Source of the DNA: Acidobacteriota bacterium
GTDB lineage: Bacteria > Acidobacteriota > Terriglobia > Bryobacterales > Bryobacteraceae
Assembly (NCBI GenBank): GCA_016213775.1
Contig: JACQZR010000147.1
Location: 62,001-126,000, forward strand
Direction of reading: 5' to 3'
Length of the DNA stretch: 64,000 bases
Below the pieces are notes generated by a model. That model searched no databases and was not told the DNA's origin. It was given only the letters and a program-made list of their open reading frames with translations. Position numbers and translations under genes: made by a program. Below, in pieces: positions 14,572-26,817 of the stretch (the stretch's first letter is position 1; each line of letters begins with the position of its first letter).

Positions 14572-14616
14572 TGGAGCGGGAGACGAGAATCGAACTCGCA
14601 ACCAACAGCTTGGAAG
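14572..14616. repeat. attL: left 45-bp attachment repeat (tRNA 3' half)
   Basis: Identical over 45 bp to 26743-26787. It holds the T arm, the 3' acceptor strand and CCA of tRNA-Gly up to the anticodon region, but not the 5' half, so it is a tRNA fragment and not a gene. This is the chromosomal 3' end displaced by integration. Confidence 0.93.
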
Positions 14617-14845: not shown

Positions 14846-14998
14846 ATGTCGAAACTCAACACCATCGTATCGCCAAAGGGGAATTCCCGCAAGGCAAACC
14901 GCAACAAGCTTCTCTCTTTCGTCAAACAGTGGACAAAGGCCGAAGCTGCCGCTCTGAGGCACAAGGAAGCACTATCCGCAGCACGGAGGCGCAAGTGA
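14846..14998 (+). CDS. Small basic protein, first satellite gene
   Basis: 50 residues, strongly basic (many Lys and Arg, ending AARRRK), no cysteine and no membrane segment. The ATG has ACGAGG 5 nt upstream. Its stop overlaps the GTG start of the next gene (GTGA), which together with good codon use supports it as real. The function is unknown; its size and charge would suit a DNA-binding or regulatory peptide of the replication module. Confidence 0.6.
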   Translation: MSKLNTIVSPKGNSRKANRNKLLSFVKQWTKAEAAALRHKEALSAARRRK

Positions 14999-15672
14999 GA
15001 CCGGAGATGGGGGGCCGCCCTTCGGCGCGGTCCTTTCATATCGACTGGGGCCGGTTGCGCATTCTCGACGTGTGGCGAGACCTCGGGGGCGGTGAACTCC
15101 GCGGCAACCGGGGGCGCGCCTTCTGGCGGGATGGCGACGGCTACAACGTCTCTATAGATCCAGACCGGCAAGTATGGTACGACCATGCACGCGCGGAGGG
15201 TGGAGGTTTTCTTGAACTGGCGGCAGTAGCACTCGGGAGCAAGGCGGCGGCGGTCCAGTGGATTGCCGTGATGTACGGCGAAGCGCTTGATCCAACGGAA
15301 GCCCAAAAGGTTGGACAGGAGTTGGCGCAACGCAGGCAAATCGCGGAGTACGCACGGCTTTGGCGCGCTGCCAACATCCGCACTACCGAGAACATCAAGG
15401 CCGATACGTGCGTGATGATCAACGCGCGTGTCGGTGAAGAAAGGGATCGGGCATGGTTTCTCTTCACGCAAGCAGCGCGCGAACTCTGGCGATTTGAGCA
15501 ACTGCACAGCGATGCACTTCATGACGCCTTTGTCTCCGCGGTCGCAAATGACCCCGAATACGTGGCACGGCTGATCCACGAACAACGGGGACATGAAGGC
15601 GAGGCGAAAGGATTGGCCTGTTTCATCGTTGCATGCCTTGCACACGAACAAAGGGGGGCGAATGCAGCCTAA
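14995..15672 (+). CDS. Primase-like (CHC2-type domain relative) protein
   Basis: 225 residues from GTG 14995 (GGAGG 5 nt upstream). Residues about 15-75 (RDLGGGELRGNRGRAFWR, DGDGYNVSID and WYDHARAEGGGFLEL) match the layout of the primase zinc-binding domain, in which an FDHARGEGG-like stretch is followed by an alpha-helix. The zinc cysteines and histidine are not evident. The rest is helical with no TOPRIM motif recognised. It lies directly before the RepA-like ATPase with an 11-bp overlap, so it probably acts in initiating satellite replication. Confidence 0.6.
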   Translation: MRPEMGGRPSARSFHIDWGRLRILDVWRDLGGGELRGNRGRAFWRDGDGYNVSIDPDRQVWYDHARAEGGGFLELAAVALGSKAAAVQWIAVMYGEALDPTEAQKVGQELAQRRQIAEYARLWRAANIRTTENIKADTCVMINARVGEERDRAWFLFTQAARELWRFEQLHSDALHDAFVSAVANDPEYVARLIHEQRGHEGEAKGLACFIVACLAHEQRGANAA

Positions 15673-16693
15673 CCTTCAATCGGAAGCGCTGGCGACGGTA
15701 GGGAAGCATCTGACCATCATTGAGGGCGCGGAGAAGTCCGCAAAGAAGAACGGGAGACCGCGGCCGCAACTGGAAACCGTCGATGCTCTCGACATCTTCA
15801 AGCGGGAATTCCCTGAGCCGCAATTCCTCATTGATGACCTGCTGCCGAATGGTGTCACCATTCTGGCGGGCCGGCCGAAGTCTGGAAAAAGCTGGCTTAC
15901 CCTTCAAATCGCTATCAGCGTCGCGTGTGGCTCCCCGTTGTTCGGGGAGCACAAGACAAAGCAGGGGCGTGTTACTTATCTCGCACTGGAGGAACCGGAA
16001 TCGCGGACCCATCACCGATTGAAGCGGCTGATTAATCCGTCTGAATGTGACACCCCGTTCCTTCAGAACATTTCTTTCGTTTACCGGATTCCCCCTTTGC
16101 TCGCAGGTGGAAAGGAAATGCTTGATGATCACCTGGCGGCGCATCCATCACAACTCTGCGTGATTGACACCTTGCTCGCCATCGTTCAGAACCGAAGCAG
16201 CAAGGATGTCATGCGGAGCGATTACACGGAAGTGAACGAACTCCGCAAGCTGGCAGAGAGGCACAACACGGCGATCCTCTTGGTGGCCCACAGCCGGAAG
16301 ATGGGCGCGGATTATCACGTTGATACCGTTGCTGGCACGTCGGGGGTTACCGCGGCGTGTGATGCCATCTGGAGCCTCAAAAAGAAACCGGAGGGCGCAA
16401 CCCTGGACATCACGGGCCGGGAGTTTGAAGAGAACGTTATCGGCTTGCGTTTCGACACTGATGTCCCCTTCGGTTGGCAAAAGACCGGTGAGGGTGAGGC
16501 GGTGGCCAACAGCGAGGAGCGAGAGGAGATTATCACCCTTCTAGGGGATGAGGCTCCACTGTCCCCAAAGGCCATTGCAGACGGGCTACGGAAGAACAGG
16601 AACACCATTCGGCGGCTGTTGCAGAAGATGTACTGTGCTGGCGCCGTGGTGAAGAACTCGGATGGGAGGTACTGCCTTGCATCAGGGGTGTGA
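15662..16693 (+). CDS. RepA-like replicative ATPase/helicase with C-terminal wHTH
   Basis: 343 residues from ATG 15662, after GGGGGG. The RecA-type AAA fold has Walker A AGRPKSGKSW (about 70-80), an acidic LALEEPE and Walker B LCVIDT, and a sensor-like LLVAHSRK. The final 70 residues look like a winged helix (SPKAIADGLRKNRNTIRRLL), which could recognise the iterons that begin at its stop codon. The layout of helicase-initiator followed by iterons is like the rep-ori region of phage satellites and some plasmids. Confidence 0.83.
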   Translation: MQPNLQSEALATVGKHLTIIEGAEKSAKKNGRPRPQLETVDALDIFKREFPEPQFLIDDLLPNGVTILAGRPKSGKSWLTLQIAISVACGSPLFGEHKTKQGRVTYLALEEPESRTHHRLKRLINPSECDTPFLQNISFVYRIPPLLAGGKEMLDDHLAAHPSQLCVIDTLLAIVQNRSSKDVMRSDYTEVNELRKLAERHNTAILLVAHSRKMGADYHVDTVAGTSGVTAACDAIWSLKKKPEGATLDITGREFEENVIGLRFDTDVPFGWQKTGEGEAVANSEEREEIITLLGDEAPLSPKAIADGLRKNRNTIRRLLQKMYCAGAVVKNSDGRYCLASGV

Positions 16694-16854
16694 ACAGGCG
16701 TGAACAGGGAACAGCGTGAACAACCGTGAACAGCGTGAACAGATCGGGGTAGGTGTGAACAGGCGTGAACAGGCCGTGAACAGGAGAACTGCGTCTAAGT
16801 TGCTGCAATCGCGTCTCTTATGTTTTCTGTCCCTCTCCTGTTCACGCTGTTCAC
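16690..16854. repeat. Iteron array, candidate replication origin of the satellite
   Basis: The 8-mer GTGAACAG occurs seven times exactly in direct orientation (starts 16690, 16700, 16726, 16735, 16755, 16765, 16776), plus a variant GTGAACAA at 16716 and a partial copy at 16708. Spacing is about 9-11 bp, one helical turn, within each cluster. After a 54-bp gap with relatively more A and T, two copies occur in inverted orientation (16838 and 16847). The array starts at the end of the RepA-like gene, the classic place for an iteron origin. Confidence 0.75.
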
Positions 16855-16873
16855 ACACACGAGAGAAGAGATT

Positions 16874-17113
16874 ATGAAGAACCCCACCTATGAGCACCTA
16901 AGGCTATTGCAGGCGGCAGAGCAAGCCCGCGGCATCCTGCGCCTGTGCATCACCAGCGGGGTAGAGGAACGCGCCAGAGACGCCATGGGACGCGCGGCGG
17001 CCGTGCTCACAGCGGGCATGAAGGCGCGGAAGGGCAGGGGCGTCAAACGATCTTTTGAGCCAGAAAGCCCGCGGGTAGCAGCATTGCGCAGTCTTTCTAG
17101 TGGAAGTGATTGA
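16874..17113 (+). CDS. Small helical protein of unknown function
   Basis: 79 residues from ATG 16874 (GAGAAGAG upstream), mostly alpha-helical and basic in the second half (MKARKGRGVKR). There is no recognised domain, membrane segment or signal peptide. It follows the iteron array and could be a replication accessory or regulator. It is shorter than the full open frame, whose beginning lies in the inverted iterons. Confidence 0.5.
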   Translation: MKNPTYEHLRLLQAAEQARGILRLCITSGVEERARDAMGRAAAVLTAGMKARKGRGVKRSFEPESPRVAALRSLSSGSD

Positions 17114-17125
17114 AATATGAGGGGC

Positions 17126-17692
17126 TTACCGTACTTGATTATTACTGAGGGCCCATACCACCATGTTCCGAAGCACTATGGCTTCCCGGAGTCGCATATC
17201 CAAGTAGAAGGACATCGCCCATTGGTAACTGGAACGTGTACGCGTGCCGAGGTTATCCCAGTCTGTTCTTCGGTTGTCGGAGTGGAACCAATGAGAAGCC
17301 CACGCGCTCACCAGTTGTTCGGGGGTGTACTCTCTACTTTTTCCAGAGGACAGTTCGATGAGCTTCGGCCGCATCGTACTGACACAGCTACGAATGTGGC
17401 TTCTCAACTCTCTGGCAACCTCCACAATCTCCGAATCAGTGACACTTCTGCTGATTGCGGAGTAGACCCGATCAATGTGTACAGGGTCACTTTTCAACAG
17501 GAACAACTGCCGGAATTCCACAAAAAAGGACTTCATTGTCTCACTTCTCACGTTAGTCGCGCTGCCAGCTTGGAGGCGATGTTCCCAATTCTTCGCGTAC
17601 CGGGATTGCAAGAGTTGGGTTGCGACCTCTTGAAATCGGTGAAGTATTTCCTTGTCGGAAATGGATGGCGCGCTACCCTTCTTTCTCCCCAT
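17126..17692 (-). CDS. Minus-strand accessory gene of the satellite, unknown function
   Basis: 188 residues from ATG 17692. Helical and moderately charged, with RFQEVATQLLQSRYAKNWEH early and TPEQLVSAWASHWFHSDNRR later; no family recognised. It runs against the rest of the element and starts only 20 bp from the divergent TerS-like start, so the two promoters must overlap coding sequence. The location between replication and packaging modules is where satellites carry variable cargo such as defence or helper-interference genes. That role is inferred from position alone. Confidence 0.6.
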   Translation of the reverse strand: MGRKKGSAPSISDKEILHRFQEVATQLLQSRYAKNWEHRLQAGSATNVRSETMKSFFVEFRQLFLLKSDPVHIDRVYSAISRSVTDSEIVEVARELRSHIRSCVSTMRPKLIELSSGKSREYTPEQLVSAWASHWFHSDNRRTDWDNLGTRTRSSYQWAMSFYLDMRLREAIVLRNMVVWALSNNQVR

Positions 17693-17712
17693 AGGGTGGA
17701 CGGTAACAAAAA

Positions 17713-18033
17713 ATGCCCAAACTGAGCAAGTCCGACATATTCGCCAAAGTCTCACAGAACGAGGCGCGGCGGCGGAAAGAGGTAGCTCTCGCCGAACTCC
17801 GCGAGATGGAAGTTGCCAAACTCCGGGGCGAACTCGTGGCGCGGGATGCGGTTTCAGATGCGGTGACAAAGGCGTTCGGCATGGTGAAGGCGGCGGTACT
17901 CCGGATACCAGACAAGAGCGCGCGTCACGTGATGGCGGCGGGGACTCCGAAGGAAGCGCGGGATATCCTCCTAGCGGACTGTGAAGGGGCATTGAAAGGG
18001 GCACATGACGAGCTTGCAAAATTCGCCGGTTGA
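17713..18033 (+). CDS. Terminase small subunit-like protein (Nu1-type)
   Basis: 106 residues. N-terminal basic helix (RRRKEVALAELREMEVAKLR) and then a segment of the type RDAVSDAVTKAFGMVKAAVL with RIPDKSAR, as in Nu1/TerS-type packaging proteins. It directly precedes TerL and overlaps it by 29 bp. It would recognise the satellite's own DNA (pac or cos) and recruit TerL. No clear HTH could be assigned at the N-terminus, so the identification rests on this pattern and on gene order. Confidence 0.68.
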   Translation: MPKLSKSDIFAKVSQNEARRRKEVALAELREMEVAKLRGELVARDAVSDAVTKAFGMVKAAVLRIPDKSARHVMAAGTPKEARDILLADCEGALKGAHDELAKFAG

Positions 18034-19816
18034 CTTCATCCACGCAACGGCCGCGGCGGCCATCCTTCCACCGCGGCGCGTGCGTCTTTCTGAGTGGGCA
18101 GAGGAGCATTACCGACTTTCCAGCGAATCGAGCGCGGTTCCGGGGTCGTTCACCTGTTTCGAGTATCAGCGCGAACCTTTGGACGCCATGGGGCCGGATT
18201 CCGGCTATGAAAACGTGGTGTTGGTTTGGGCCAGTCAGATGGGCAAAACCAATCAGACTTTGGCGGCGGTCTGCCACATGATCGCAGAAAACCCCGGGCC
18301 GGCCTTGTGCGTTCAACCGACTTTGAGCATGAGTGAGGCCTTCAGTAAGGAACGGCTTGCCCCCATGTTCCGGGATTGTCCGATTCTCCGCGGCAAGGTT
18401 GCCGAATCGAAGGGGCGGGATTCCGGGAGTACGATCTTTTCGCGGCGGTTCGCCGGCGGGCAACTCTCCATCGCAACCAGCAATTCGCCGGCGGGCCTGG
18501 CGTCGCGTCCCATCCGGTTTCTGTTGCTCGATGAGGTGGACCGGTTCGAAGCATCCGCCGGCAGCGAAGGCGATCCGGTGGACCTGGCGCGGGCTCGCAC
18601 CCGGAGTTTCTGGAATCGCAAAATCGTGATGACGAGCTCGCCCACCACGAAGGGCGCAAGCCGCATAGAGGCCGCCTGGCTGGAATCGGATCAACGGGAA
18701 TTTGAGATCCCTTGCCCGCACTGTGGCGCGTACCAGGTGTTGACGTGGGGGCGCGTCGAATACGACGAAGAGCGGCTCGAGGAAACGGCGTACCGCTGCT
18801 CGCATTGCGAGGAACTTATCCCGCACCATCGCAAGCTGTATATGCTGGCCCGCGGCAAGTGGGTGGCGCGGCAACCGGGCCGGCCGGTGGCTGGCTTCCA
18901 CCTGAGCGAATTGTACAGCCCCTGGCGCGCATGGGGCGAACTGGCGGCGGACTGGCTGAAGGCGCAGGGCTACCCGGAACGGTTGCGGAGTTTTATCAAC
19001 GTCACATTGGCGGAGTGGTGGAGCGATGAGGCGGCCGGGGCGGTCCGTGAGGACGAACTGATGGCGCGGCGGGAATCCTATGGGCCGGTGCTGCCAGAGC
19101 ACTCGGCGCTGATAACCGCGGGCGTCGACGTGCAAGCGGATCGCGTGGAAATCTCGGTGTTCGCATGGGGCGCCGGCGATGAAAGCTGGCTGATGACGCA
19201 TCGTGTGATTCCCGGTGACCCATCGGCGCCGGGCTTATGGCAAGCGCTCGATTCGTTCTTGATGGAGCAATGGCAACACCCGATTGTGGGACCGATGCCG
19301 ATCCATGCGGCGTGTGTCGATAGCGGCGCGTTTACGGGGCAGGTTACCCGGTTCTGCGATGAACGGCGCGGGCGGCGTGTGTTCGCCATCAAGGGCGCAC
19401 CTGGCGGGCGTCCGGTGTGGCCGCGGCGCGACAGCAAGGCGGCAAAGGGGCGCGTGTGGATAATCGGCGTTGATGCCTTGCGAACTACGCTCACGCATCG
19501 CCTGAGAATCGAGGAAGGGCCGGGCCGGATGCACTTCCCCGCGAAGGTGGAGCGGGGATATTTTGAGCAACTGACTTCCGAGTACGTGAGCACCAGCTAC
19601 AAACGGGGTCGTCCTTTGCGCGTGTGGGAACGGCGGAAGGGCCGGAGGGCTGAGGCGTGGGACTGTTCGGTCTATGCGCTGGCGAGCGTCTATGCACTTG
19701 CGGCGCACGGTATATCGGTGGATGTCGAGGCGGCGCGCATCGAATCCATGCGGCAAGCCGGGGCCGTGCGGACGGAAGGCTATCAAACATTTCGGAGTCG
19801 GTTTGTTTCGGGGTGA
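18005..19816 (+). CDS. Phage terminase large subunit (lambda gpA type)
   Basis: 603 residues, normal for the GpA family. The ATPase half has a Walker A-like SQMGKT after YENVVLVWA, an adenine/coupling region, and LLLDEVDR as the Walker B with catalytic Glu. A zinc-ribbon-like CPHCGAY and CSHCEEL follow near the middle, and the C-terminal nuclease carries acidic residues (AGVDVQADRVEI, VDSG). It packages DNA into preformed heads. It is the strongest phage marker in the element. The start overlaps the TerS-like gene. Confidence 0.95.
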   Translation: MTSLQNSPVDFIHATAAAAILPPRRVRLSEWAEEHYRLSSESSAVPGSFTCFEYQREPLDAMGPDSGYENVVLVWASQMGKTNQTLAAVCHMIAENPGPALCVQPTLSMSEAFSKERLAPMFRDCPILRGKVAESKGRDSGSTIFSRRFAGGQLSIATSNSPAGLASRPIRFLLLDEVDRFEASAGSEGDPVDLARARTRSFWNRKIVMTSSPTTKGASRIEAAWLESDQREFEIPCPHCGAYQVLTWGRVEYDEERLEETAYRCSHCEELIPHHRKLYMLARGKWVARQPGRPVAGFHLSELYSPWRAWGELAADWLKAQGYPERLRSFINVTLAEWWSDEAAGAVREDELMARRESYGPVLPEHSALITAGVDVQADRVEISVFAWGAGDESWLMTHRVIPGDPSAPGLWQALDSFLMEQWQHPIVGPMPIHAACVDSGAFTGQVTRFCDERRGRRVFAIKGAPGGRPVWPRRDSKAAKGRVWIIGVDALRTTLTHRLRIEEGPGRMHFPAKVERGYFEQLTSEYVSTSYKRGRPLRVWERRKGRRAEAWDCSVYALASVYALAAHGISVDVEAARIESMRQAGAVRTEGYQTFRSRFVSG

Positions 19817-20224: not shown

Positions 20225-20887
20225 ATGGTTTTAACGGCAGATCTTCGAAAGCAACTTGCGGACGAACCCGCAATCACATTCGCTGGCTTGCTGTACATCA
20301 CGGGTCTGCCACGTGGCACAGTGGAAGGCTACCTCCGGCGGGGCATCGTAAAGCTATCCGACGATCAGCCACGGGGAAAGGGCCATCATCGGCGGTATAC
20401 CGGTCGTGAGGCCGCGAAAATCTACAGCGTGTTTCTCATGTCGAAGGCCGGCGTAGCTCCCGCTTCCATATCCTCCCTGGTTAATGAATCCCCCAAGTAT
20501 CGGGATCACTATGAGATGCCAAAGGAGCAGCAAGAACGATTGTTCGATCTCTTTAAGGAAAAAGGAATCCCGATTCCGCTTCCGTTGACGGCGGACCAAA
20601 AGGCAGCCCGCGAACCAGCATGGATTGATTTGATCATTGACGACTTCATCCAAAACGGTGAGGAAAGCAAGTATGCGAATGCGTCACCTGTTGTATGCAA
20701 CCCCAGCGGACACTACGGCATCACGACAGGAAAGATGAATGTCCTCTTTGCGGACCGGGAGAGTCTCGTTGCGCAAATGAGAGAAGACAACACCCTGACA
20801 TATGTCGTTGTCGATCTGTACCAAATTGTCCACGACGTGTTCAATGGCAGTCTATTAGAGGTATGGCAACAGAGCCAGGAGAATTGA
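20225..20887 (+). CDS. MerR-like HTH regulator inside the packaging module
   Basis: 220 residues. Residues about 15-90 form a MerR-type winged helix: FAGLLYITGLPRGTVEGYLR, a basic wing GKGHHRRYTGREA, then a helix pair with SKAGVAPASISSL. The C-terminal 120 residues are an unrecognised domain with EMPKEQQERLFDLFKEKGI. The ATG lies only 20 nt from the -10 box and has no clear ribosome site, so translation may be near-leaderless. Its stop overlaps the portal ATG (TGATG), so regulator and portal are cotranscribed. Probably autoregulated through the dyad upstream. Confidence 0.72.
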   Translation: MVLTADLRKQLADEPAITFAGLLYITGLPRGTVEGYLRRGIVKLSDDQPRGKGHHRRYTGREAAKIYSVFLMSKAGVAPASISSLVNESPKYRDHYEMPKEQQERLFDLFKEKGIPIPLPLTADQKAAREPAWIDLIIDDFIQNGEESKYANASPVVCNPSGHYGITTGKMNVLFADRESLVAQMREDNTLTYVVVDLYQIVHDVFNGSLLEVWQQSQEN

Positions 20888-22254
20888 TGTTCACGCGTGC
20901 TACGAATTGGCTTCGATCCCTCATCCTGCGCAGTGTCCTTTGGGACGCCGCGGGCGGCGGAAACCGCCTGGCACGGTGGGGCGCGCCTGCGTCCGGGCCG
21001 GCAACCTACCACGACAACCCCATCCAATTACGTGCGAGGGCAGAGGATCAGTACCGGAACAACCCTTGGGCGCGGAAAGCCGTGAACGCCATTCGCGACG
21101 CCGCGTGGGGCGCATCGGCGATCAACCCCATGTTCGCGAACAAGGTCACTCAGGAGGCCTGGAAACGCTGGGAATCGTCATGCGACGCAGCGGGCCGCCT
21201 GGATTGGTGCTCACTCGGTGCGATGGTGGTTCAGACGGTGATTGTCTCCGGGGAGGCGTTCATTGTTCTCTCTTTAGATCCGAACGCCAAGGGGCATCCG
21301 TTGCGCCTGACTGTGTTGGGGCCTGAGTTCCTGGACACGTCGCGCGTGGATGGTGATACCTACGGTATCCGCTACGACGGGGCGCGGGAGGCGGGTTACT
21401 GGCTGTTTCCGCGGCATCCCGGTTTACAGCCGATGGCAAGTTTTGAAAGCGTCTTTGTTCCGGTAGAGAACTGCCTCCGCATCGCGCGGGATATCGCACC
21501 TGGCGCGCAACACGGGCAATCGTGGCTGGCACCTGTTTTGCTGCCTTTGCGGGAACTGAATGAGTATCTCGAATCGGCGTTGGTGAAAGCGAAGGTGGCG
21601 GCGCTGTTCGCTGGATTCGTCCGAACTCCGGACGGATCAAACCCGATGCTGAACTCTGACGGCGTGCCGGTGCTGGAACCTGGAAGTATGACCCGGTTGC
21701 GGCCATCTGAGGAAGTGGAATTTTCAAACCCACCTGACGTGGGCATCTCTTTCGATCCCTTCGTCAGAGCGCAGTTGCGGCGGATCGCGTCCGGGCTCAG
21801 CATCCCCTACGAGATTCTTTCCGGTGACCTTTCGGCCGTCACATTTGCAAGCGGCCGTCATGGGCTTCTGGAGTACCGTCGGACAATGGAGAGCATCCAG
21901 TATGGCCTGATGGTGCCCCAGTTTTGCGCACCCGTGATGAGGCGCTGGCTGGCGATCGCGGCGGCGTTGGAAATGATTCCCGCGGAGGAGCCTATCCGGT
22001 GGATCGCTCCCAACCTGGAAATGCTCGATCCGCGAGTAGAGACGTTGGCACAGATTCAGCGTGTCCGGGCCGGGTTCACTTCGAGAACTGAAATTGTAGC
22101 GGCGGCCGGTTGGCGCGTGGAAGACATTGACTCGGAAATTGCCGCGGACAACTCGCGGGCCGACGGCTTGGGCTTGGTGCTCGACTCGGACCCACGCAAA
22201 ACGACCTTGCAGGGACAGGAACAACCGGAACAACAGGGAGGGCAAGCGGCGTGA
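20887..22254 (+). CDS. Phage portal protein (lambda family)
   Basis: 455 residues from ATG 20887, chosen because GGAG lies 5 nt upstream; the open frame extends to 20695 inside the regulator gene. Typical lambda-portal pieces: RAEDQYRNNPWARKAVNAIR, then VNC-type core AFIVLSLDP and the conserved GLSIPYEILSGDLSAVTFAS with YRRTME. The protein forms the dodecameric ring at the capsid vertex through which DNA enters. It is slightly short for the family but intact at both ends. Confidence 0.93.
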   Translation: MFTRATNWLRSLILRSVLWDAAGGGNRLARWGAPASGPATYHDNPIQLRARAEDQYRNNPWARKAVNAIRDAAWGASAINPMFANKVTQEAWKRWESSCDAAGRLDWCSLGAMVVQTVIVSGEAFIVLSLDPNAKGHPLRLTVLGPEFLDTSRVDGDTYGIRYDGAREAGYWLFPRHPGLQPMASFESVFVPVENCLRIARDIAPGAQHGQSWLAPVLLPLRELNEYLESALVKAKVAALFAGFVRTPDGSNPMLNSDGVPVLEPGSMTRLRPSEEVEFSNPPDVGISFDPFVRAQLRRIASGLSIPYEILSGDLSAVTFASGRHGLLEYRRTMESIQYGLMVPQFCAPVMRRWLAIAAALEMIPAEEPIRWIAPNLEMLDPRVETLAQIQRVRAGFTSRTEIVAAAGWRVEDIDSEIAADNSRADGLGLVLDSDPRKTTLQGQEQPEQQGGQAA

Positions 22255-22454
22255 TCTACAGTCATCAGCAAGGGCCGCCAGAGTACCGGCAACCGCGGCA
22301 ATTTGACCCGGTGCGAGGAGCGCAGGGGCGCGCGTGGGGATTGACCCGCGAGCTATTGAGATGCATCCGTGAAATCCCGGATGATCGGCGCGGCAACGCA
22401 CTTGAAGACTTGGCGGAGTATCTGGAGAAAATATGCGCACAACCGAAGTCTTAA
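22251..22454 (+). CDS. Small protein between portal and capsid genes
   Basis: 67 residues starting with GTG 22251, which overlaps the portal stop (GTGA); its end overlaps the protease-capsid start by 22 bp. The tight overlaps on both sides and helix-rich C-terminus (NALEDLAEYLEKI) argue for a real gene. No family recognised. It could be an assembly factor. Confidence 0.5.
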   Translation: MIYSHQQGPPEYRQPRQFDPVRGAQGRAWGLTRELLRCIREIPDDRRGNALEDLAEYLEKICAQPKS

Positions 22455-24166
22455 CACGTGGGGCGACCTTTGAACCCTCAACGTTCAACGCGGAGAGCAA
22501 CACCGTTTCCGTGGTGTTCTCGACTGGCGCCGAAACGACGCGTTGGGACGGGCAAGGCCAATTCATAGAACGCCTGGACATGACGCCGGCGGCCGTGGAT
22601 CTCACCCGGTTGAACGGCGGGCCGGTGCTCGCCAATCATGACCGTTTTTCCGTCGATTCTGTTCTCGGAATCGTGGAAACCTCCACGGTGGACGGCACCA
22701 GGGGTACGGCAACAGTCCGATTTGGACAACGGCCTGAAATTCAGGGCATCGTTACCGACATCCGCGGCGGCATCATTCGCAGCGTCTCAGTGGGCTACAC
22801 GGTCCAGCAGTGGAAGGAAAGCAAGCGGCCGGACGGGGTACGCGTGAAAGATGCGATCCGCTGGACGCCAGTAGAAATTTCGTTTACGCCGATTGGGGCC
22901 GATCCCGCGGCCAAAACTCGCTCGATTGGAGAATCCATGCACGAAACACAAATTCGAGAGCTCGCAACCGCGGTAGGCGTTCAAGCGGCTTTCGCTGACG
23001 ATCTAATTCAACGCAACATCAGTTTGGATGATGCCCGTACCGCCATCATCCGTGAGGCGGCCGGCCGCCTTCCCACTATCAACAACCGGCAACCGGCAAC
23101 GGTTACCCGCGATTCCCGCGATGGGCTGATTGAGCGGATGGCCGATGGCCTTCTAGCCCGCATCAATCCGCTTCACAAACCGGACGCCGGCAAGGAGTTC
23201 GCCACGCACAGGATTGGCGAACTGGCTTTGCGGTATTGCCGTGAGACCGGGCTCAGCACCTTGGGTAGCAGGGCTGAACTCATCACGCGCGCCATGCAAA
23301 CGACATCCGATTTCCCCTACATCTTGGCGGAGGTGTTCAATAAAGGTCTGCTGGTACTGCGGACAAGCCCAACGCCGATTCTGCAAGTGTTCAAGCGCGC
23401 GACGGTGGATGATTTCCGCAAGCGTCACGTATTGGAGCTCAGCGACGGTTCTGGGCTGTCGAAAGTTGCTGAGAGCGGTGAAATCAAGTGGGGAACCATC
23501 AAGGACGCGGAACTGGCCAGCTACGGCATTGCCAGCTACGCCAAAGGGTACACGATTAGTTTCCAGACTCTCGTGAATGATGACATGGGAGTGCTCGCCG
23601 ATCTGTCCATGAGAATCACCCGCGGTGCGCGTACCTGGTTCGCCGGGTTCCTGGTGGACACCATCATTGCTAATCCAAAACTTGCGGACAACAAAGCCGT
23701 CTTTCATGCCGATCACGGCAATCTGGCGGGGACCGGCAATGCGCCTGGCGAGGGCCAACTTTCCGAGGCGAAACTTGCGATGCGGTTGCAGACCGATCTA
23801 TCCGGCAATCCGATTGACGCGCGGCCGGTTTACATTCTGATCCCCGCGGCGCTGGAAACTGGCGTTGATAAACTCATGGCTCAGTTGTACCCGCAGCAAT
23901 CCAGCGATGCGGAGGTTTCGGCGCGCAACCTTACCTCTGTTGTCGATCCGCGGTTTGATGCCAAGGGGCAGAACAAAGCTTGGTACTTGTTTGCCGATCC
24001 CGCAACGGCGCCGGTGTTCGAGTATGCCGAACTTTCGGGATACGAAGGTCCGCGAGTCGAGACGCAACCGGGCTTCAATACCCTGGGAACGGAAATGCGC
24101 GTTGTCTGGCACGTCGGCGCGGGCGCAATCGACCATCGCGGAGCGTACAAAAACGCAGGAGTGTAA
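22433..24166 (+). CDS. Prohead protease-major capsid protein fusion
   Basis: 577 residues from ATG 22433 (GGAG 5 nt upstream). Residues 1-168 form an HK97-type prohead protease with His69 (LANHD) and Ser119 (SVSVGY), and the closing PVEISFTPIGADPA. The rest, from about Met169, is a Mu gpT-like major capsid protein (TRITGARTWFAGFLVD-like helix and NPKLADNKAVFHADHGN). An internal ATG at 22937 has GGAG with ideal spacing, so a capsid-only product may also be made. Protease and capsid are usually separate genes. Confidence 0.9.
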   Translation: MRTTEVLTRGATFEPSTFNAESNTVSVVFSTGAETTRWDGQGQFIERLDMTPAAVDLTRLNGGPVLANHDRFSVDSVLGIVETSTVDGTRGTATVRFGQRPEIQGIVTDIRGGIIRSVSVGYTVQQWKESKRPDGVRVKDAIRWTPVEISFTPIGADPAAKTRSIGESMHETQIRELATAVGVQAAFADDLIQRNISLDDARTAIIREAAGRLPTINNRQPATVTRDSRDGLIERMADGLLARINPLHKPDAGKEFATHRIGELALRYCRETGLSTLGSRAELITRAMQTTSDFPYILAEVFNKGLLVLRTSPTPILQVFKRATVDDFRKRHVLELSDGSGLSKVAESGEIKWGTIKDAELASYGIASYAKGYTISFQTLVNDDMGVLADLSMRITRGARTWFAGFLVDTIIANPKLADNKAVFHADHGNLAGTGNAPGEGQLSEAKLAMRLQTDLSGNPIDARPVYILIPAALETGVDKLMAQLYPQQSSDAEVSARNLTSVVDPRFDAKGQNKAWYLFADPATAPVFEYAELSGYEGPRVETQPGFNTLGTEMRVVWHVGAGAIDHRGAYKNAGV

Positions 24167-24171
24167 AAGCA

Positions 24172-24378
24172 ATGACCCTGAGTGAACTGCAAGCGGAGCG
24201 AGACAAGATTCTGAAGGCTCTTTCGATGCCTCATAGCCTCACTGCTGGAGACAAGTCGGTAACCCGACAAACCAGCGTTGAACTGCGAGAGTCTTTGGCG
24301 GTGGTGGATAGCGAGATTGCCCGCTTGCAGGGCAGTACAGGCAGAACGTTCGTGATTCAAAGTGATAGGGGAATTTGA
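24172..24378 (+). CDS. gpW-like head-tail connector protein
   Basis: 68 residues, the same length as lambda gpW. Pattern: an N-terminal helix (LSELQAERDKILKAL), a short beta-like segment with Gly and Thr, then a second helix (SVELRESLAVVDSEIARLQ) and an extended tail. gpW-type proteins plug the filled head and form the tail-binding site. AGGAG lies 10 nt upstream. Its presence in an element without tail genes fits a capsid designed to receive a helper's tail. Confidence 0.6.
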   Translation: MTLSELQAERDKILKALSMPHSLTAGDKSVTRQTSVELRESLAVVDSEIARLQGSTGRTFVIQSDRGI

Positions 24379-24380
24379 AA

Positions 24381-24731
24381 ATGAAAAACTACATTCAGAA
24401 GGGCGAGACGCTCACGGTAACGGCACCTGCCACCATCACAAGCGGGGCGGTTGTCGTCGTCGGTTCCATCATCGGCATCGCGGCAACGGACGCCGCAAGC
24501 GGCGATGAAGTAGAGGTGGACACGGAAGGCGTCTTTGAGCTTACGAAGGTCACAACGGACGCTGTGAGCCAAGGGGACAAGTTGTATTGGGACTCTGGCG
24601 CATCGAAGGTCACCAAGACAGCGGGAACCGGATCAAAGCCATTGGTAGGCGTCGCAACGGCCGCGGCCGGCAACGGCGTAACGTCGGTGAATTGCCGTTT
24701 GATGCTGACGGGGCAAACCGGGGCAGCCTAA
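24381..24731 (+). CDS. Capsid cement/decoration protein (DUF2190-like)
   Basis: 116 residues from ATG 24381 (TTG at 24375 is an alternative). Composition is beta-rich with many Ala, Gly, Thr and Val and blocks such as SGAVVVVGSIIGIAATDAAS and LYWDSGASKVTKT, characteristic of the small capsid cement family DUF2190. It would bind to the outside of the shell and stabilise packaged heads. Codon use is consistent with its neighbours. Confidence 0.78.
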   Translation: MKNYIQKGETLTVTAPATITSGAVVVVGSIIGIAATDAASGDEVEVDTEGVFELTKVTTDAVSQGDKLYWDSGASKVTKTAGTGSKPLVGVATAAAGNGVTSVNCRLMLTGQTGAA

Positions 24732-24740
24732 GGAGGCACC

Positions 24741-25151
24741 ATGCGCAGAATCTTTCCCGTGCTGATTGCGGCGTTCCTGACGGTGGCGATTCCTTCCACT
24801 GCGCAGGAGCCTTTGCTTTCGCGCGTCACAACATCTATCGCCAGCGGGCAGAGTCTCACGGGTTCAATCGACCTCAAGGACCATCCGCTCATCGCAATCG
24901 AGATGCCTGCCTCCTGGACCGCGGCAACCCTCACCTTCCAAGGTAGCTCCGACGGAACCACGTGGAAGGACGTGTTCAACATGGAGGGCGACGAATTCAC
25001 GATTCAGGCGGCTGCCTCGCGCTACATCGTCCTTAGCCCGTTCGAGTTTCAATGGGCGCGGTACATCAAGATCAGGAGCGGAACAACCGGAACGCCGGTT
25101 AATCAAGGGGCTGCACGAACCCTAGTGGTGGTGACCCGACGCATTCTGTAA
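24741..25151 (+). CDS. Signal-peptide protein resembling a phage structural protein
   Basis: 136 residues. The first ~21 residues are a clear signal peptide (FPVLIAAFLTVAIPSTAQ). The mature part is beta-rich with FQGSSDGTTWKDVFN and VRYLKIRSGT-like segments (YIKIRSGTTGT), which occur in small phage virion-associated proteins. A signal peptide on such a protein is unusual, and export by the host would separate it from the cytoplasmic heads. It could be a cell-surface factor such as superinfection exclusion. The function is not known. Confidence 0.6.
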   Translation: MRRIFPVLIAAFLTVAIPSTAQEPLLSRVTTSIASGQSLTGSIDLKDHPLIAIEMPASWTAATLTFQGSSDGTTWKDVFNMEGDEFTIQAAASRYIVLSPFEFQWARYIKIRSGTTGTPVNQGAARTLVVVTRRIL

Positions 25152-25251
25152 CCGAGTTTTGGGCCGGGGCTTCATTGGGATTGGATTCACCCTGGCGGGC
25201 CGTCTCCAGCGCGGGCCTCCTTCGCGCCCACGGCGGCATTTTGAGATTGTC

Positions 25252-25497
25252 ATGGAAGTAAAGAAACGAACACGTGCACCGAAACCACCCATCGACTCGC
25301 GGGAGTGGATGAGCGCTGAGGAAGTGGCCGCGATGATCGGATGCAGCAAGGCAACCGTTCAACGGTTCGCCAATGGTGAGTATCGGCAATACCCACGGCT
25401 TCCTTTTATTCCATGCGGAATCAAGAAACGCGTCTATCGGAAAGAGAGCACGCTCGCCTGGCTGGCTGAGTTAGAAAGGATGGCGATTGCGAAGTGA
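25252..25497 (+). CDS. Small helix-turn-helix protein (excisionase/AlpA-like)
   Basis: 81 residues from ATG 25252. A single HTH of the DNA-binding excisionase type (SAEEVAAMIGCSKATVQRFA) with a Tyr/Lys-rich wing. It directly precedes the integrase. Small AlpA/Xis-like proteins in this position control excision and the induction of PICI-type islands by a helper phage. The length suits a recombination directionality factor. Confidence 0.72.
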   Translation: MEVKKRTRAPKPPIDSREWMSAEEVAAMIGCSKATVQRFANGEYRQYPRLPFIPCGIKKRVYRKESTLAWLAELERMAIAK

Positions 25498-25553
25498 TAC
25501 CCTGTCTTTCGAGTCATGAACACGTTGTCTCTGTTGCGCTGGAAGGAACCATC

Positions 25554-26687
25554 ATGCGCAAGAGAGCACCGAGACGGCGCTATCAGAGGGGGTGCATTCG
25601 CAATGTAGAAGGAAGTTGGATTCTCAAGTACTACGACGCCGAACGGAAGCAACGGACCAAGACCCTGGGGCCATCGGCGGGGAAAGACAAGCTGTCACGC
25701 AACCATGCGGAGCGCGCGGCGGCCGAGTTTCTGAGGCCGTTCAATGAAGATCCGAAGGAACGCAAGCGGCAAACCACCCTGGCGGAGTTTGTCGAGAAAG
25801 TGTACGTCCCCATCAAACGTAATTCCGGGGCTTGGCGTAAGGGAACGGAGATAACGGCAGTGGACACCATAGAAGCTTACCTACTGCCACATTTGGGCAC
25901 TGTCAGAATGTCTGAACTCGAACCCGATCATTTCAGACAAGTGCTCCTGAAGGTCAGAGACAAGGGGCTGGGGAAGTCGGTCCTTTCGCACGTCCGCACC
26001 TTCGCCAAAGCCATCTGCAAAATGGCACACGCGGAGGGCTACATTGATCGTGACATCACGGCGGCGCTCGACCCAGTGACGCCGAAGGGTGCGCAGAAAG
26101 AAAAACTGACAGTCACCAAGGAAGATTATGCGCTCGCGAAACGAATGGTAGCCGAACGCGAACGCCTGGCGCTGGATCTTGTGATGTACTGCGGGCTACG
26201 TGAAAGCGAAGTGTATGCTTTGCAGGTTGGCGACTTGATGGAGGGCAACGTTTTGGAGGTTCGCCGGTCCTGGCACCAGGGCGCCGTGAACGATCCGAAG
26301 TCCTTCAAAGGGCGCCGTAAGGTTGGTGTACCTCCGAAGGTCATGGAAGCATTGCGGACGTGGGCAGCAACCCTGCCTGATTCGTCCGCGGCCGCTTGGC
26401 TGTTCCCATCATCCACCGTGGTAACCCCATTGTGGGGCGGGAACATCCTGGGGAAGCACATCAAGCCGAAGTTGAAGCCGGTCGGGCTCGATTGGCTGAA
26501 CTTCGCCATCGTGAGGCGGACCCATTCCACCGAGCAAGAGAAGCTGAAAACCGATCCGCGGATTGTGGCCAAGCAGCAAGGTCATAGTATGGACGTTCAC
26601 TACCGTGAGTACGTCCAAACCGACACTTCAGAACTTGAAGCGGCGGCAACGCTGTTGCATACTAAATTTGACGAGACAATCGTCTGA
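25554..26687 (+). CDS. int: Tyrosine-recombinase integrase
   Basis: 377 residues from ATG 25554 (AAGGAA site upstream; the frame also opens at GTG 25494). N-terminal arm-binding region with RRYQRG, a core-binding domain around 80-180, then the catalytic domain: GLRESE (Arg I), VRRTHST (Arg-His box, in which the usual first His is not obvious), GHSMDVHYREY with the Tyr nucleophile. It should catalyse recombination between the 45-bp repeats, which begin 56 bp after its stop. The 3' end is followed by an arm-like site. Confidence 0.93.
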   Translation: MRKRAPRRRYQRGCIRNVEGSWILKYYDAERKQRTKTLGPSAGKDKLSRNHAERAAAEFLRPFNEDPKERKRQTTLAEFVEKVYVPIKRNSGAWRKGTEITAVDTIEAYLLPHLGTVRMSELEPDHFRQVLLKVRDKGLGKSVLSHVRTFAKAICKMAHAEGYIDRDITAALDPVTPKGAQKEKLTVTKEDYALAKRMVAERERLALDLVMYCGLRESEVYALQVGDLMEGNVLEVRRSWHQGAVNDPKSFKGRRKVGVPPKVMEALRTWAATLPDSSAAAWLFPSSTVVTPLWGGNILGKHIKPKLKPVGLDWLNFAIVRRTHSTEQEKLKTDPRIVAKQQGHSMDVHYREYVQTDTSELEAAATLLHTKFDETIV

Positions 26688-26742: not shown

Positions 26743-26787
26743 TGGAGCGGGAGACGAGAATCGAACTCGCAACCAACAGCTTGGAAG
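26743..26787. repeat. attR: right 45-bp attachment repeat
   Basis: Perfect copy of 14572-14616. Here it completes the functional tRNA-Gly gene, as expected when an element integrates into the 3' half of a tRNA and restores it. Confidence 0.93.
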
Positions 26788-26817
26788 GCTGTGACTCTAC
26801 CATTGAGTTACTCCCGC
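26743..26817 (-). tRNA. tRNA-Gly (anticodon TCC)
   Basis: 75 nt with encoded CCA. The cloverleaf is complete: acceptor GCGGGAG/CTCCCGC, D stem ACTC/GAGT, anticodon stem ACAGC/GCTGT with loop CTTCCAA (anticodon TCC), T stem with TTCGATT loop. Its 3' 45 nt are supplied by the mobile element. The promoter would be on the right, outside the element, so host expression is preserved. Confidence 0.95.

What the first reader, a model, noticed from the sequence alone, without database searches (positions are those of the whole stretch)
16690..16854. Iteron array with flanking inverted copies next to a RepA-like ATPase
Seven exact and two near copies of GTGAACAG, about one helical turn apart, plus two inverted copies 54 bp away. 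The array begins at the stop of an ATPase with a C-terminal winged helix. Satellites such as SaPIs place their rep gene beside two iteron sets flanking a melting region, and the layout here is the same in outline.
Basis: partly seen in the sequence, partly recalled or inferred. Interest (0 to 1): 0.7.

Follow-up and report, generated by a model that had tools for sequence, protein, structure and literature searches.

The report
Phage-satellite replication origin beside its helicase
Short DNA repeats just behind a helicase gene in a small phage-like element look like its replication start site, and in distant relatives the repeats and the part of the helicase that should read them change together.

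Summary
The repeats are real: seven exact GTGAACAG copies forward and two inverted, starting at the stop codon of a 343-residue protein, far beyond chance. They lie in a 12.2-kb tRNA-Gly-integrated, capsid-encoding element with no recognised tail genes. The protein is a RecA-fold (RepA/DnaB, SF4) helicase with a C-terminal winged helix, not the motor families found here in P4 and an E. coli PICI. Among 176 non-identical homolog loci, 105 carry a short-repeat array at the rep 3' end (6 of 176 control regions do); 103 of the 105 have both orientations, commonest spacing is 9 bp, and the gap between opposed copies is AT-enriched. The 8-mer itself is not conserved: 75 distinct best 7-mers in 99 loci. 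Over 45 disjoint pairs, repeat similarity follows the recognition helix (partial rank correlation 0.68, 0 of 5000 permutations), not the rest of the winged helix or the ATPase. Best reading: a PICI-format origin driven by a helicase carrying its own origin-reading domain, with fast-changing specificity. The core match to the P4 origin repeat is probably convergence. No replication or binding was shown.

The parts
14572..14616 (.). attL: 45-bp copy of the tRNA-Gly 3' end
   Evidence: direct repeat with 26743-26787, identical over 45 bp; start-to-start 12171
14929..15672 (+). 247-aa protein upstream of rep; weakly similar to the N-terminal part of a fused homolog (L075), so possibly a split primase-side subunit
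   Evidence: phmmer vs L075 5.7e-6, L030 1.3e-15, L046 4.1e-14; no Pfam match above cut-off
15662..16693 (+). rep: 343-aa RepA/DnaB-like (SF4, RecA-fold) helicase
   Evidence: AAA_25 2.7e-28; AF2 pLDDT 89.4; VIA Z 23.2 to RSF1010 RepA 1g8y
16496..16681 (+). coding stretch of the C-terminal winged helix (residues 279-340); recognition helix 313-325
   Evidence: AF2 models; weak HTH families
16690..16783 (+). forward iterons: seven exact GTGAACAG plus near copies at 16707-16714 and 16716-16723; begins at the rep stop codon
16784..16837 (.). 54-bp gap between opposed iterons, candidate melting region: 52% AT vs 42% in the element, 92nd percentile of 54-bp windows in it
16838..16854 (-). two inverted GTGAACAG copies, 9 bp apart
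16874..17113 (+). 79-aa ORF of unknown function right after the origin
   Evidence: no Pfam or PHROG family
17713..18033 (+). terminase small subunit
   Evidence: phrog_57 5.6e-14
18005..19816 (+). terminase large subunit, gpA type
   Evidence: GpA_ATPase 1.7e-79, GpA_nuclease 4.1e-86; phrog_15 3e-220
20695..22254 (+). lambda-type portal
   Evidence: Phage_portal_2 8.3e-72; TIGR01539 4.2e-67
22433..24166 (+). prohead protease / major capsid fusion
   Evidence: NF045541 1.1e-168; phrog_4523 2.1e-158
24375..24731 (+). head decoration protein
   Evidence: phrog_122 9.5e-34; Phage_cement_2 1.2e-28
25159..25497 (+). HTH_17 excisionase/regulator-like protein
   Evidence: HTH_17 1.2e-5, just under its cut-off; phrog_66 4.3e-6
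25494..26687 (+). tyrosine integrase
   Evidence: phrog_1 1.7e-36
26743..26817 (-). tRNA-Gly (tcc), integration target; attR 26743-26787

Best explanation
The array is the replication origin of a small capsid-encoding phage satellite. The C-terminal winged helix of the adjacent 343-residue RepA/DnaB-like (SF4) helicase binds the 8-mers through its recognition helix. Subunits gather on the forward and the inverted block, one on each side of the AT-richer 54-bp gap. The gap opens, and a helicase ring is placed in each direction without a separate initiator or loader. Steps shown by sequence: the array and its geometry, the helicase fold (predicted), the winged helix (predicted), and covariation of the repeat with the recognition helix across the family. 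Steps inferred: binding, melting, ring loading, bidirectional replication, and induction by a helper phage.
For: Array far above chance and its paired form unique in the genome. 105 of 176 non-identical homolog loci have an array at the rep 3' end, 6 of 176 same-locus control regions do; 103 of the 105 have both orientations; same-orientation spacing peaks at 9 bp. In 63 of 103 loci the locus-wide repeat maximum lies at the rep 3' end, about 4% expected. Copies form exactly two orientation blocks in 55 of 105 loci, shuffling gives 18 on average. Gap AT 0.492 vs locus 0.405 in 94 loci, Wilcoxon 4e-12. Iteron similarity tracks the recognition helix: partial Mantel given ATPase 0.225, 0 of 1000 permutations; in 45 disjoint pairs partial rank r 0.679 given ATPase and rest of winged helix, 0 of 5000, while the rest of the winged helix gives -0.10 and the ATPase 0.19, p 0.11. 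Natural switch: L060 vs L067 share 222 of 237 ATPase residues but 5 of 14 helix residues, and GGTGACA becomes GGTTGCA. Converse: L006 vs L158 share 63 of 235 ATPase residues but 8 of 14 helix residues, and both use CCAACAG. Covariation is strongest at R318, N314, K311, R317. Same layout, with 9-bp steps in its forward block and another motor, in E. coli PICI EcCIMP1.
Against: No binding, replication or excision data. 71 of 176 homolog loci show no significant array by the test, among them 5 of the 15 closest to the window (two of the five, L012 and L030, miss by one shuffle in 100). The window's two sets are unequal (7 vs 2 exact) and its gap is only 52% AT. The exact 8-mer is not kept even in the closest relatives. 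Shared ancestry is lessened, not removed: in the first, smaller all-pairs test (68 loci) ATPase given helix (0.189) was as strong as helix given ATPase (0.16), and helix given whole winged helix was weak (0.069, 59 of 2000); in the larger one (99 loci) ATPase given helix was still 0.118 (0 of 1000); in one pair test it was p 0.007. The array transcript could fold (RNA z -2.5, 5 of 200 shuffles as good).
Confidence: 0.85

Rival explanations
1. The repeats are operators: Rep or another wHTH protein represses the downstream late genes or rep itself, and the origin lies elsewhere.
For: The inverted pair ends 19 bp before the start codon of the 79-aa ORF; the wHTH profile matches transcription regulators best in the PDB.
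Against: No sigma-70-like promoter was found at 16500-17200 (weak evidence in this phylum). The arrays are multi-copy, often two-block, and 3' of rep across the family. No other exact copy of the 8-mer occurs in the window.
Confidence: 0.08
2. The repeats act in the transcript, as a long hairpin that ends or controls transcription.
For: Forward and inverted copies pair in the predicted RNA fold, -62.9 kcal/mol, z -2.5.
Against: No Rfam family there and no terminator-like site. Covariation with a DNA-recognition helix is not expected for an RNA element. Same-orientation blocks at 9-bp spacing are not needed for a hairpin.
Confidence: 0.03
3. It is a copy-control or incompatibility site bound by Rep, like one of the two P4 sites (ori and crr), rather than the start site itself.
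For: P4 has type 1 repeats both in ori and in crr, and crr lies right behind the alpha gene.
Against: All exact 8-mers of the window are in this one array, so no separate origin with these repeats is left over.
Confidence: 0.05
4. Close relation to P4: the shared GTGAACA core means a homologous alpha-type system.
For: 11 of 16 annotated P4 type 1 repeats read TGTTCACC, the reverse complement of GGTGAACA, with neighbours often 9-11 bp apart.
Against: P4 alpha is D5_N/DUF5906/Pox_D5; the window protein is AAA_25 with HTH families of another kind. The base before the core is G in P4 and never G in the nine exact copies here. The family has 75 distinct best 7-mers in 99 loci, so one chance match to a known iteron is not surprising.
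Confidence: 0.03

Closest known systems
PICI/SaPI replication origin (pri-rep-ori)
   Same: Origin immediately 3' of rep; two iteron sets flanking an AT-rich stretch (PMC6092414, passages). E. coli PICI EcCIMP1 shows three copies of TGAACCA in each orientation around an AT-rich gap, one block at 9-bp and the other at 21-bp steps. The SaPI Rep C-terminal domain recognises the origin (PMC7581432, passages).
   Different: The EcCIMP1 Rep is Zn_Ribbon_Prim-Toprim-DUF927 and has no match to the family HMM; here the motor is RecA-fold SF4.
Satellite phage P4 alpha / ori / crr
   Same: Helicase with C-terminal DNA-binding domain (recalled), repeats with the same 7-base core, an array right behind the gene.
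   Different: P4 alpha is D5/SF3 type; P4 has a second array in ori far from alpha; no Sid, Psu or delta family was recognised in the element's ORFs.
RSF1010 RepA hexameric helicase
   Same: ATPase fold, Z 23.2 over 214 residues, tied with DnaB chains; sequence match E 8.3e-6.
   Different: RSF1010 RepA has no winged helix and the plasmid uses a separate iteron-binding RepC (recalled); here the helicase and the putative reader are one chain.
V. cholerae PLE RepA-ori module
   Same: The DNA-binding domain and the origin covary and swap together in satellites, and an origin-directed phage nuclease may select for it (PMC8263062, passages).
   Different: PLE uses a RepA_N initiator and three ~30-bp iterons; here many ~8-bp iterons and a helicase.
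capsid-forming PICI (cfPICI)
   Same: Terminase pair, portal, protease and capsid, integrase, no recognised tail genes. Two viral-contig relatives, L057 and L080, have int-rep-HNH-TerL-MCP-protease-portal; L080 has the array, L057 has none by the test.
   Different: No HNH endonuclease or head-tail connector recognised in the window element; lambda-type cassette.

Membership tests
PICI-type origin | iterons immediately 3' of rep | tested here: met
PICI-type origin | two iteron sets flanking an AT-rich region | tested here: met
   7 forward, 2 inverted, 54-bp gap at 52% AT vs 42% element; AT excess is modest
PICI-type origin | DUF927-type Rep, as in EcCIMP1 | tested here: not met
   window rep is AAA_25; EcCIMP1 rep is DUF927; family HMM finds no match in EcCIMP1 rep
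PICI-type origin | rep-ori drives autonomous replication | not testable with these tools
   needs a plasmid assay
cfPICI | own capsid and packaging genes (TerS, TerL, portal, protease, MCP) | tested here: met
cfPICI | HNH endonuclease | tested here: not met
   none recognised among the 16 element ORFs scanned with Pfam and PHROGs
cfPICI | head-tail connectors | tested here: inconclusive
   none recognised; several small ORFs have no convincing family
cfPICI | helper-phage induction and tail use | not testable with these tools
   needs induction experiments
P4-like satellite | alpha-type D5 primase-helicase | tested here: not met
P4-like satellite | type 1 repeat GGTGAACA | tested here: inconclusive
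   7-base core shared, preceding base never G in the nine exact copies
SF4 RepA/DnaB-like hexameric helicase | RecA-fold core closest to RepA/DnaB | tested here: met
   VIA Z about 23 to RepA and DnaB chains
SF4 RepA/DnaB-like hexameric helicase | hexamer and helicase activity | not testable with these tools
   needs purified protein
Classical iteron plasmid (Rep_3 initiator) | Rep_3 / RepE-type initiator | tested here: not met
   no such Pfam match in rep

The most novel reading that the evidence does not exclude
A widespread class of self-loading SF4 helicases in phage satellites and related elements fuses the replicative motor, sometimes also primase domains, to its own origin reader. Its specificity drifts and switches quickly: mainly residues K311, N314, R317 and R318 of the recognition helix set the 8-mer. 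This creates many mutually blind replicons, perhaps to escape rivals or origin-directed nucleases. The same origin format (about 9-bp steps, two opposed blocks around an AT-rich gap, right behind the helicase gene) is then independent of the motor class, seen with AAA_25 here and with DUF927 in an E. coli PICI.
Probability: 0.5. Interest if true: 0.78.

Novelty: new variant of a known kind. Interest (0 to 1): 0.62.

Why it matters
It turns one array into a testable family rule: a helicase carrying its own origin-recognition domain and a readable, changing repeat. Natural pairs such as L060/L067, nearly identical in the motor and different in helix and repeat, allow a direct swap test of origin specificity. 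It also lets satellite origins be predicted from sequence and grouped by compatibility, and shows the PICI origin format with a motor fold (RepA/DnaB) that differs from the PICI and P4 Reps checked here.

Tried and rejected
P4 homology was my first lead, since the 8-mer core equals the P4 type 1 repeat. It was dropped because alpha is D5 type and the family samples 75 different 7-mers. RNA element: no Rfam family; the fold is only mildly better than shuffles.

A single-protein viral scan found no relative; profile scans were needed. The near search of the whole element against phage records found nothing. Order, class and phylum scans added few members: 18 of 257, 10 of 399 and 5 of 396 genomes at E 1e-40.

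Structural search of the winged helix alone gave only generic winged-helix proteins among the 50 chains listed, none at E 0.001. No P4 or SaPI domain is in that list, which excludes nothing.

Eight phage records with AAA_25-like proteins were checked: 3 of 8 have an array; the two Gordonia phages, the Wolbachia WO record, a spring podovirus and one fecal contig do not.

Rows dropped: one search dropped two loci without a stop codon (L025, L034). From 224 loci with the gene, truncated and identical C-termini were removed, leaving 176; 105 with arrays became 99 after redundancy removal. L020 was read in a wrong frame; read in the right frame it still has no array. The six helix residues were picked after on the same loci, so I rest, which uses the whole 14-residue helix fixed since. 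The EcCIMP1 repeats were counted without a shuffle control.

Full report
1. What was checked. The finding describes seven exact and two near copies of GTGAACAG plus two inverted copies. All are present at the stated place, and all nine exact copies in the 64-kb window lie in this array (shuffle mean 1.7). The first copy contains the rep stop codon. In the whole 10.96-Mb genome the paired form occurs only here.

2. The element. A 45-bp direct repeat of the tRNA-Gly 3' end stands at 14572 and 26743 (tRNA), bounding about 12.2 kb with an integrase beside the intact tRNA. Inside are terminase small and large subunits, a lambda-type portal, a protease/major capsid fusion, a head decoration protein, a HTH/excisionase-like protein and the integrase. 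Over the 16 ORFs scanned with both Pfam and PHROGs no HNH, connector or lysis family was recognised; the only tail-labelled matches are sub-threshold (phrog_17517 E 0.023 for the 136-aa ORF, phrog_4628 E 0.37 for the 247-aa protein). So I call it cfPICI-like and not a cfPICI, by the definition quoted in PMC10690885 (passages read). The host is therefore very likely an acidobacterium (inference).

3. The protein. The 343-residue protein matches AAA_25 at 2.7e-28. Its AlphaFold2 model, built on 49 aligned window and locus sequences, has mean pLDDT 89.4. VIA-align puts RSF1010 RepA (Z 23.2, 214 residues, rmsd 3.0) and DnaB chains at the top, tied within 1 Z. So the motor is of the RepA/DnaB (SF4) kind. 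Residues 279-340 form a winged helix; alone it resembles many transcription-regulator winged helices. Among ten longer homologs scanned, single ones carry CHC2 zinc-finger, Toprim, DUF3854 or DnaB N-terminal domains in front of the AAA_25 domain. The 247-aa protein upstream of rep is weakly similar to the N-terminal part of a fused one, L075.

4. The family. I collected homologs by profile from the window's bacterial family (30 of 237 genomes at E 1e-15), wider ranks, viral contigs (the first two capped at the best 80) and titled genomes. After removing truncated and identical C-termini, 176 loci remained. Searching 280 bp before to 350 bp after the rep stop for the best repeated 7-mer, 105 of 176 exceed all of 100 dinucleotide shuffles, against 6 of 176 control regions of equal length elsewhere in the same loci; five or more copies occur in 85 versus 2. 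Of the 105, 103 have copies in both orientations. The commonest spacing of same-orientation neighbours is 9 bp (187 cases; next is 8 bp with 37). Arrays start at a median of -1 relative to the stop codon. A separate location test on a first set found the locus-wide maximum at the rep 3' end in 63 of 103 loci, with about 4% expected; in 8 of the other 40 (L007, L060, L061, L063, L065, L067, L071, L091) it lies 177-247 bp before the stop, inside the end of the coding sequence. In the fifteen loci closest to the window (L003-L006, L012, L020-L024, L026-L030), 12 have an array by the 40-shuffle test and 10 by the stricter test (listed).

5. Geometry. In 55 of 105 loci the copies fall into exactly two orientation blocks, where shuffling orientations gives 18 on average and 28 at most. 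The largest gap between opposed copies is AT-richer than its locus (0.492 vs 0.405, 94 loci with a gap of at least 15 bp, Wilcoxon 4e-12). The window gap is 52% AT against 42% for the element, the 92nd percentile (all). This is the PICI origin description: iterons in two sets flanking an AT-rich region, 3' of rep (PMC6092414, passages). As a named control I read the rep end of the E. coli PICI EcCIMP1 (place taken from PMC11773190, passages): three copies at 9-bp steps, an AT-rich gap, three inverted copies at 21-bp steps, repeat TGAACCA. Its Rep is Zn_Ribbon_Prim-Toprim-DUF927 and has no match to the AAA_25 family HMM.

6. The letters change with the reading helix. The 8-mer is not kept: 75 distinct best 7-mers occur in 99 non-redundant loci. 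Nearest to the window's are TGAACAG (L029) and ATGAACA (L004; L047 carries the same repeat), both with a KN..TVRRLL helix close to the window's KNRNTIRRLLQKM; L052 also has ATGAACA with a less similar helix. A first all-pairs test on 68 loci gave both helix given ATPase (0.16) and ATPase given helix (0.189), each 0 of 2000 permutations, so it could not separate them. With 99 loci, helix given ATPase is 0.225 (0 of 1000), ATPase given the helix 0.118 (0 of 1000), ATPase given the whole winged helix 0.057 (68 of 1000). To limit shared ancestry I took 45 disjoint nearest pairs. The helix given ATPase and rest of the winged helix has partial rank correlation 0.679 (0 of 5000); the rest of the winged helix gives -0.10 and the ATPase 0.19, p 0.11. 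A natural switch: L060 and L067 share 222 of 237 ATPase residues, but only 5 of 14 helix residues, and their repeats are GGTGACA and GGTTGCA. The converse: L006 and L158 share 63 of 235 ATPase residues but 8 of 14 helix residues, and both use CCAACAG. A similar helix does not always mean the same repeat: L003 vs L073 and L053 vs L119 have similar helices, dissimilar ATPases and different repeats. Aligning the repeats along the winged-helix tree gives a family consensus near GTNACA. Mutual information with the helix exceeds 40 of 40 permutations on average and for the ten highest values, though not for the single highest value. It is strongest at R318, N314, K311 and R317 (K303, outside the helix, reaches z 2.4), and low at I316 and L320.

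7. How it most likely works. The winged helices of several Rep subunits bind each block. The opposed blocks set two helicase rings facing away from the melted gap, as proposed for SaPI Rep and SCCmec Cch2 ('two hexamers', PMC7581432, passages). Here the ring is a RepA/DnaB-type motor. In RSF1010 a separate RepC reads the iterons (recalled); here one chain seems to do both. Why the repeats change so fast is open. In V. cholerae PLE satellites the RepA DNA-binding domain and origin covary, and a phage nuclease that copies the RepA specificity may select for it (PMC8263062, passages).

8. What is and is not new. Origin format, iteron reading by a C-terminal domain, and module exchange are known from PICIs, SaPIs and PLEs. 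I found no paper describing an AAA_25/RepA-like helicase with its own iteron-reading winged helix or this covariation, in the listings of searches of an open-access library that lacks most subscription papers; the original SaPI origin, P4 alpha and cfPICI papers were not read. I therefore rate it a new variant of a known kind. Two viral-contig relatives, L057 and L080, have a cfPICI-like order int-rep-HNH-TerL-MCP-protease-portal, so the rep gene is not limited to elements of the window's type; L080 has a significant array, L057 has not.

9. Limits. Nothing here shows binding or replication. The array test misses 71 of 176 loci, some of which may use degenerate repeats or place them elsewhere. 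Viral contigs may include fragments. P-values over related sequences are approximate.

Noticed in passing
L012 (G000 contig C226): The same genome holds a second family member: a 677-residue CHC2-AAA_25-wHTH protein with its own 3' repeats of CTGTAAG (4 copies; above 40 of 40 shuffles, 1 of 100 as good), so two origins with different repeats may share one cell.
   Followed up: partly
L060, L065, L067: In these relatives the array lies inside the coding sequence of the protein's C-terminal tail, so the repeats are also translated.
   Followed up: partly
   Followed up: no
window 20225-20887: A MerR-HTH-like 220-aa ORF (E 0.007, under the cut-off) sits between terminase and portal.
   Followed up: no
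window 24741-25151: A 136-aa ORF with a signal-peptide-like start lies in the capsid cassette; only weak matches (F5/8 type C E 0.0039, a tail PHROG E 0.023).
   Followed up: partly
window 17117-17728: About 600 bp between the 79-aa ORF and the terminase small subunit hold long open frames on both strands (202 aa on +, the end of a 691-aa frame on -) without any Pfam or PHROG match.
   Followed up: partly
L085, L103, L106: These loci hold stronger repeat arrays outside the rep 3' zone (12 copies at +328, 12 at +1874, 23 at +1257 from the rep stop) that I did not identify.
   Followed up: no
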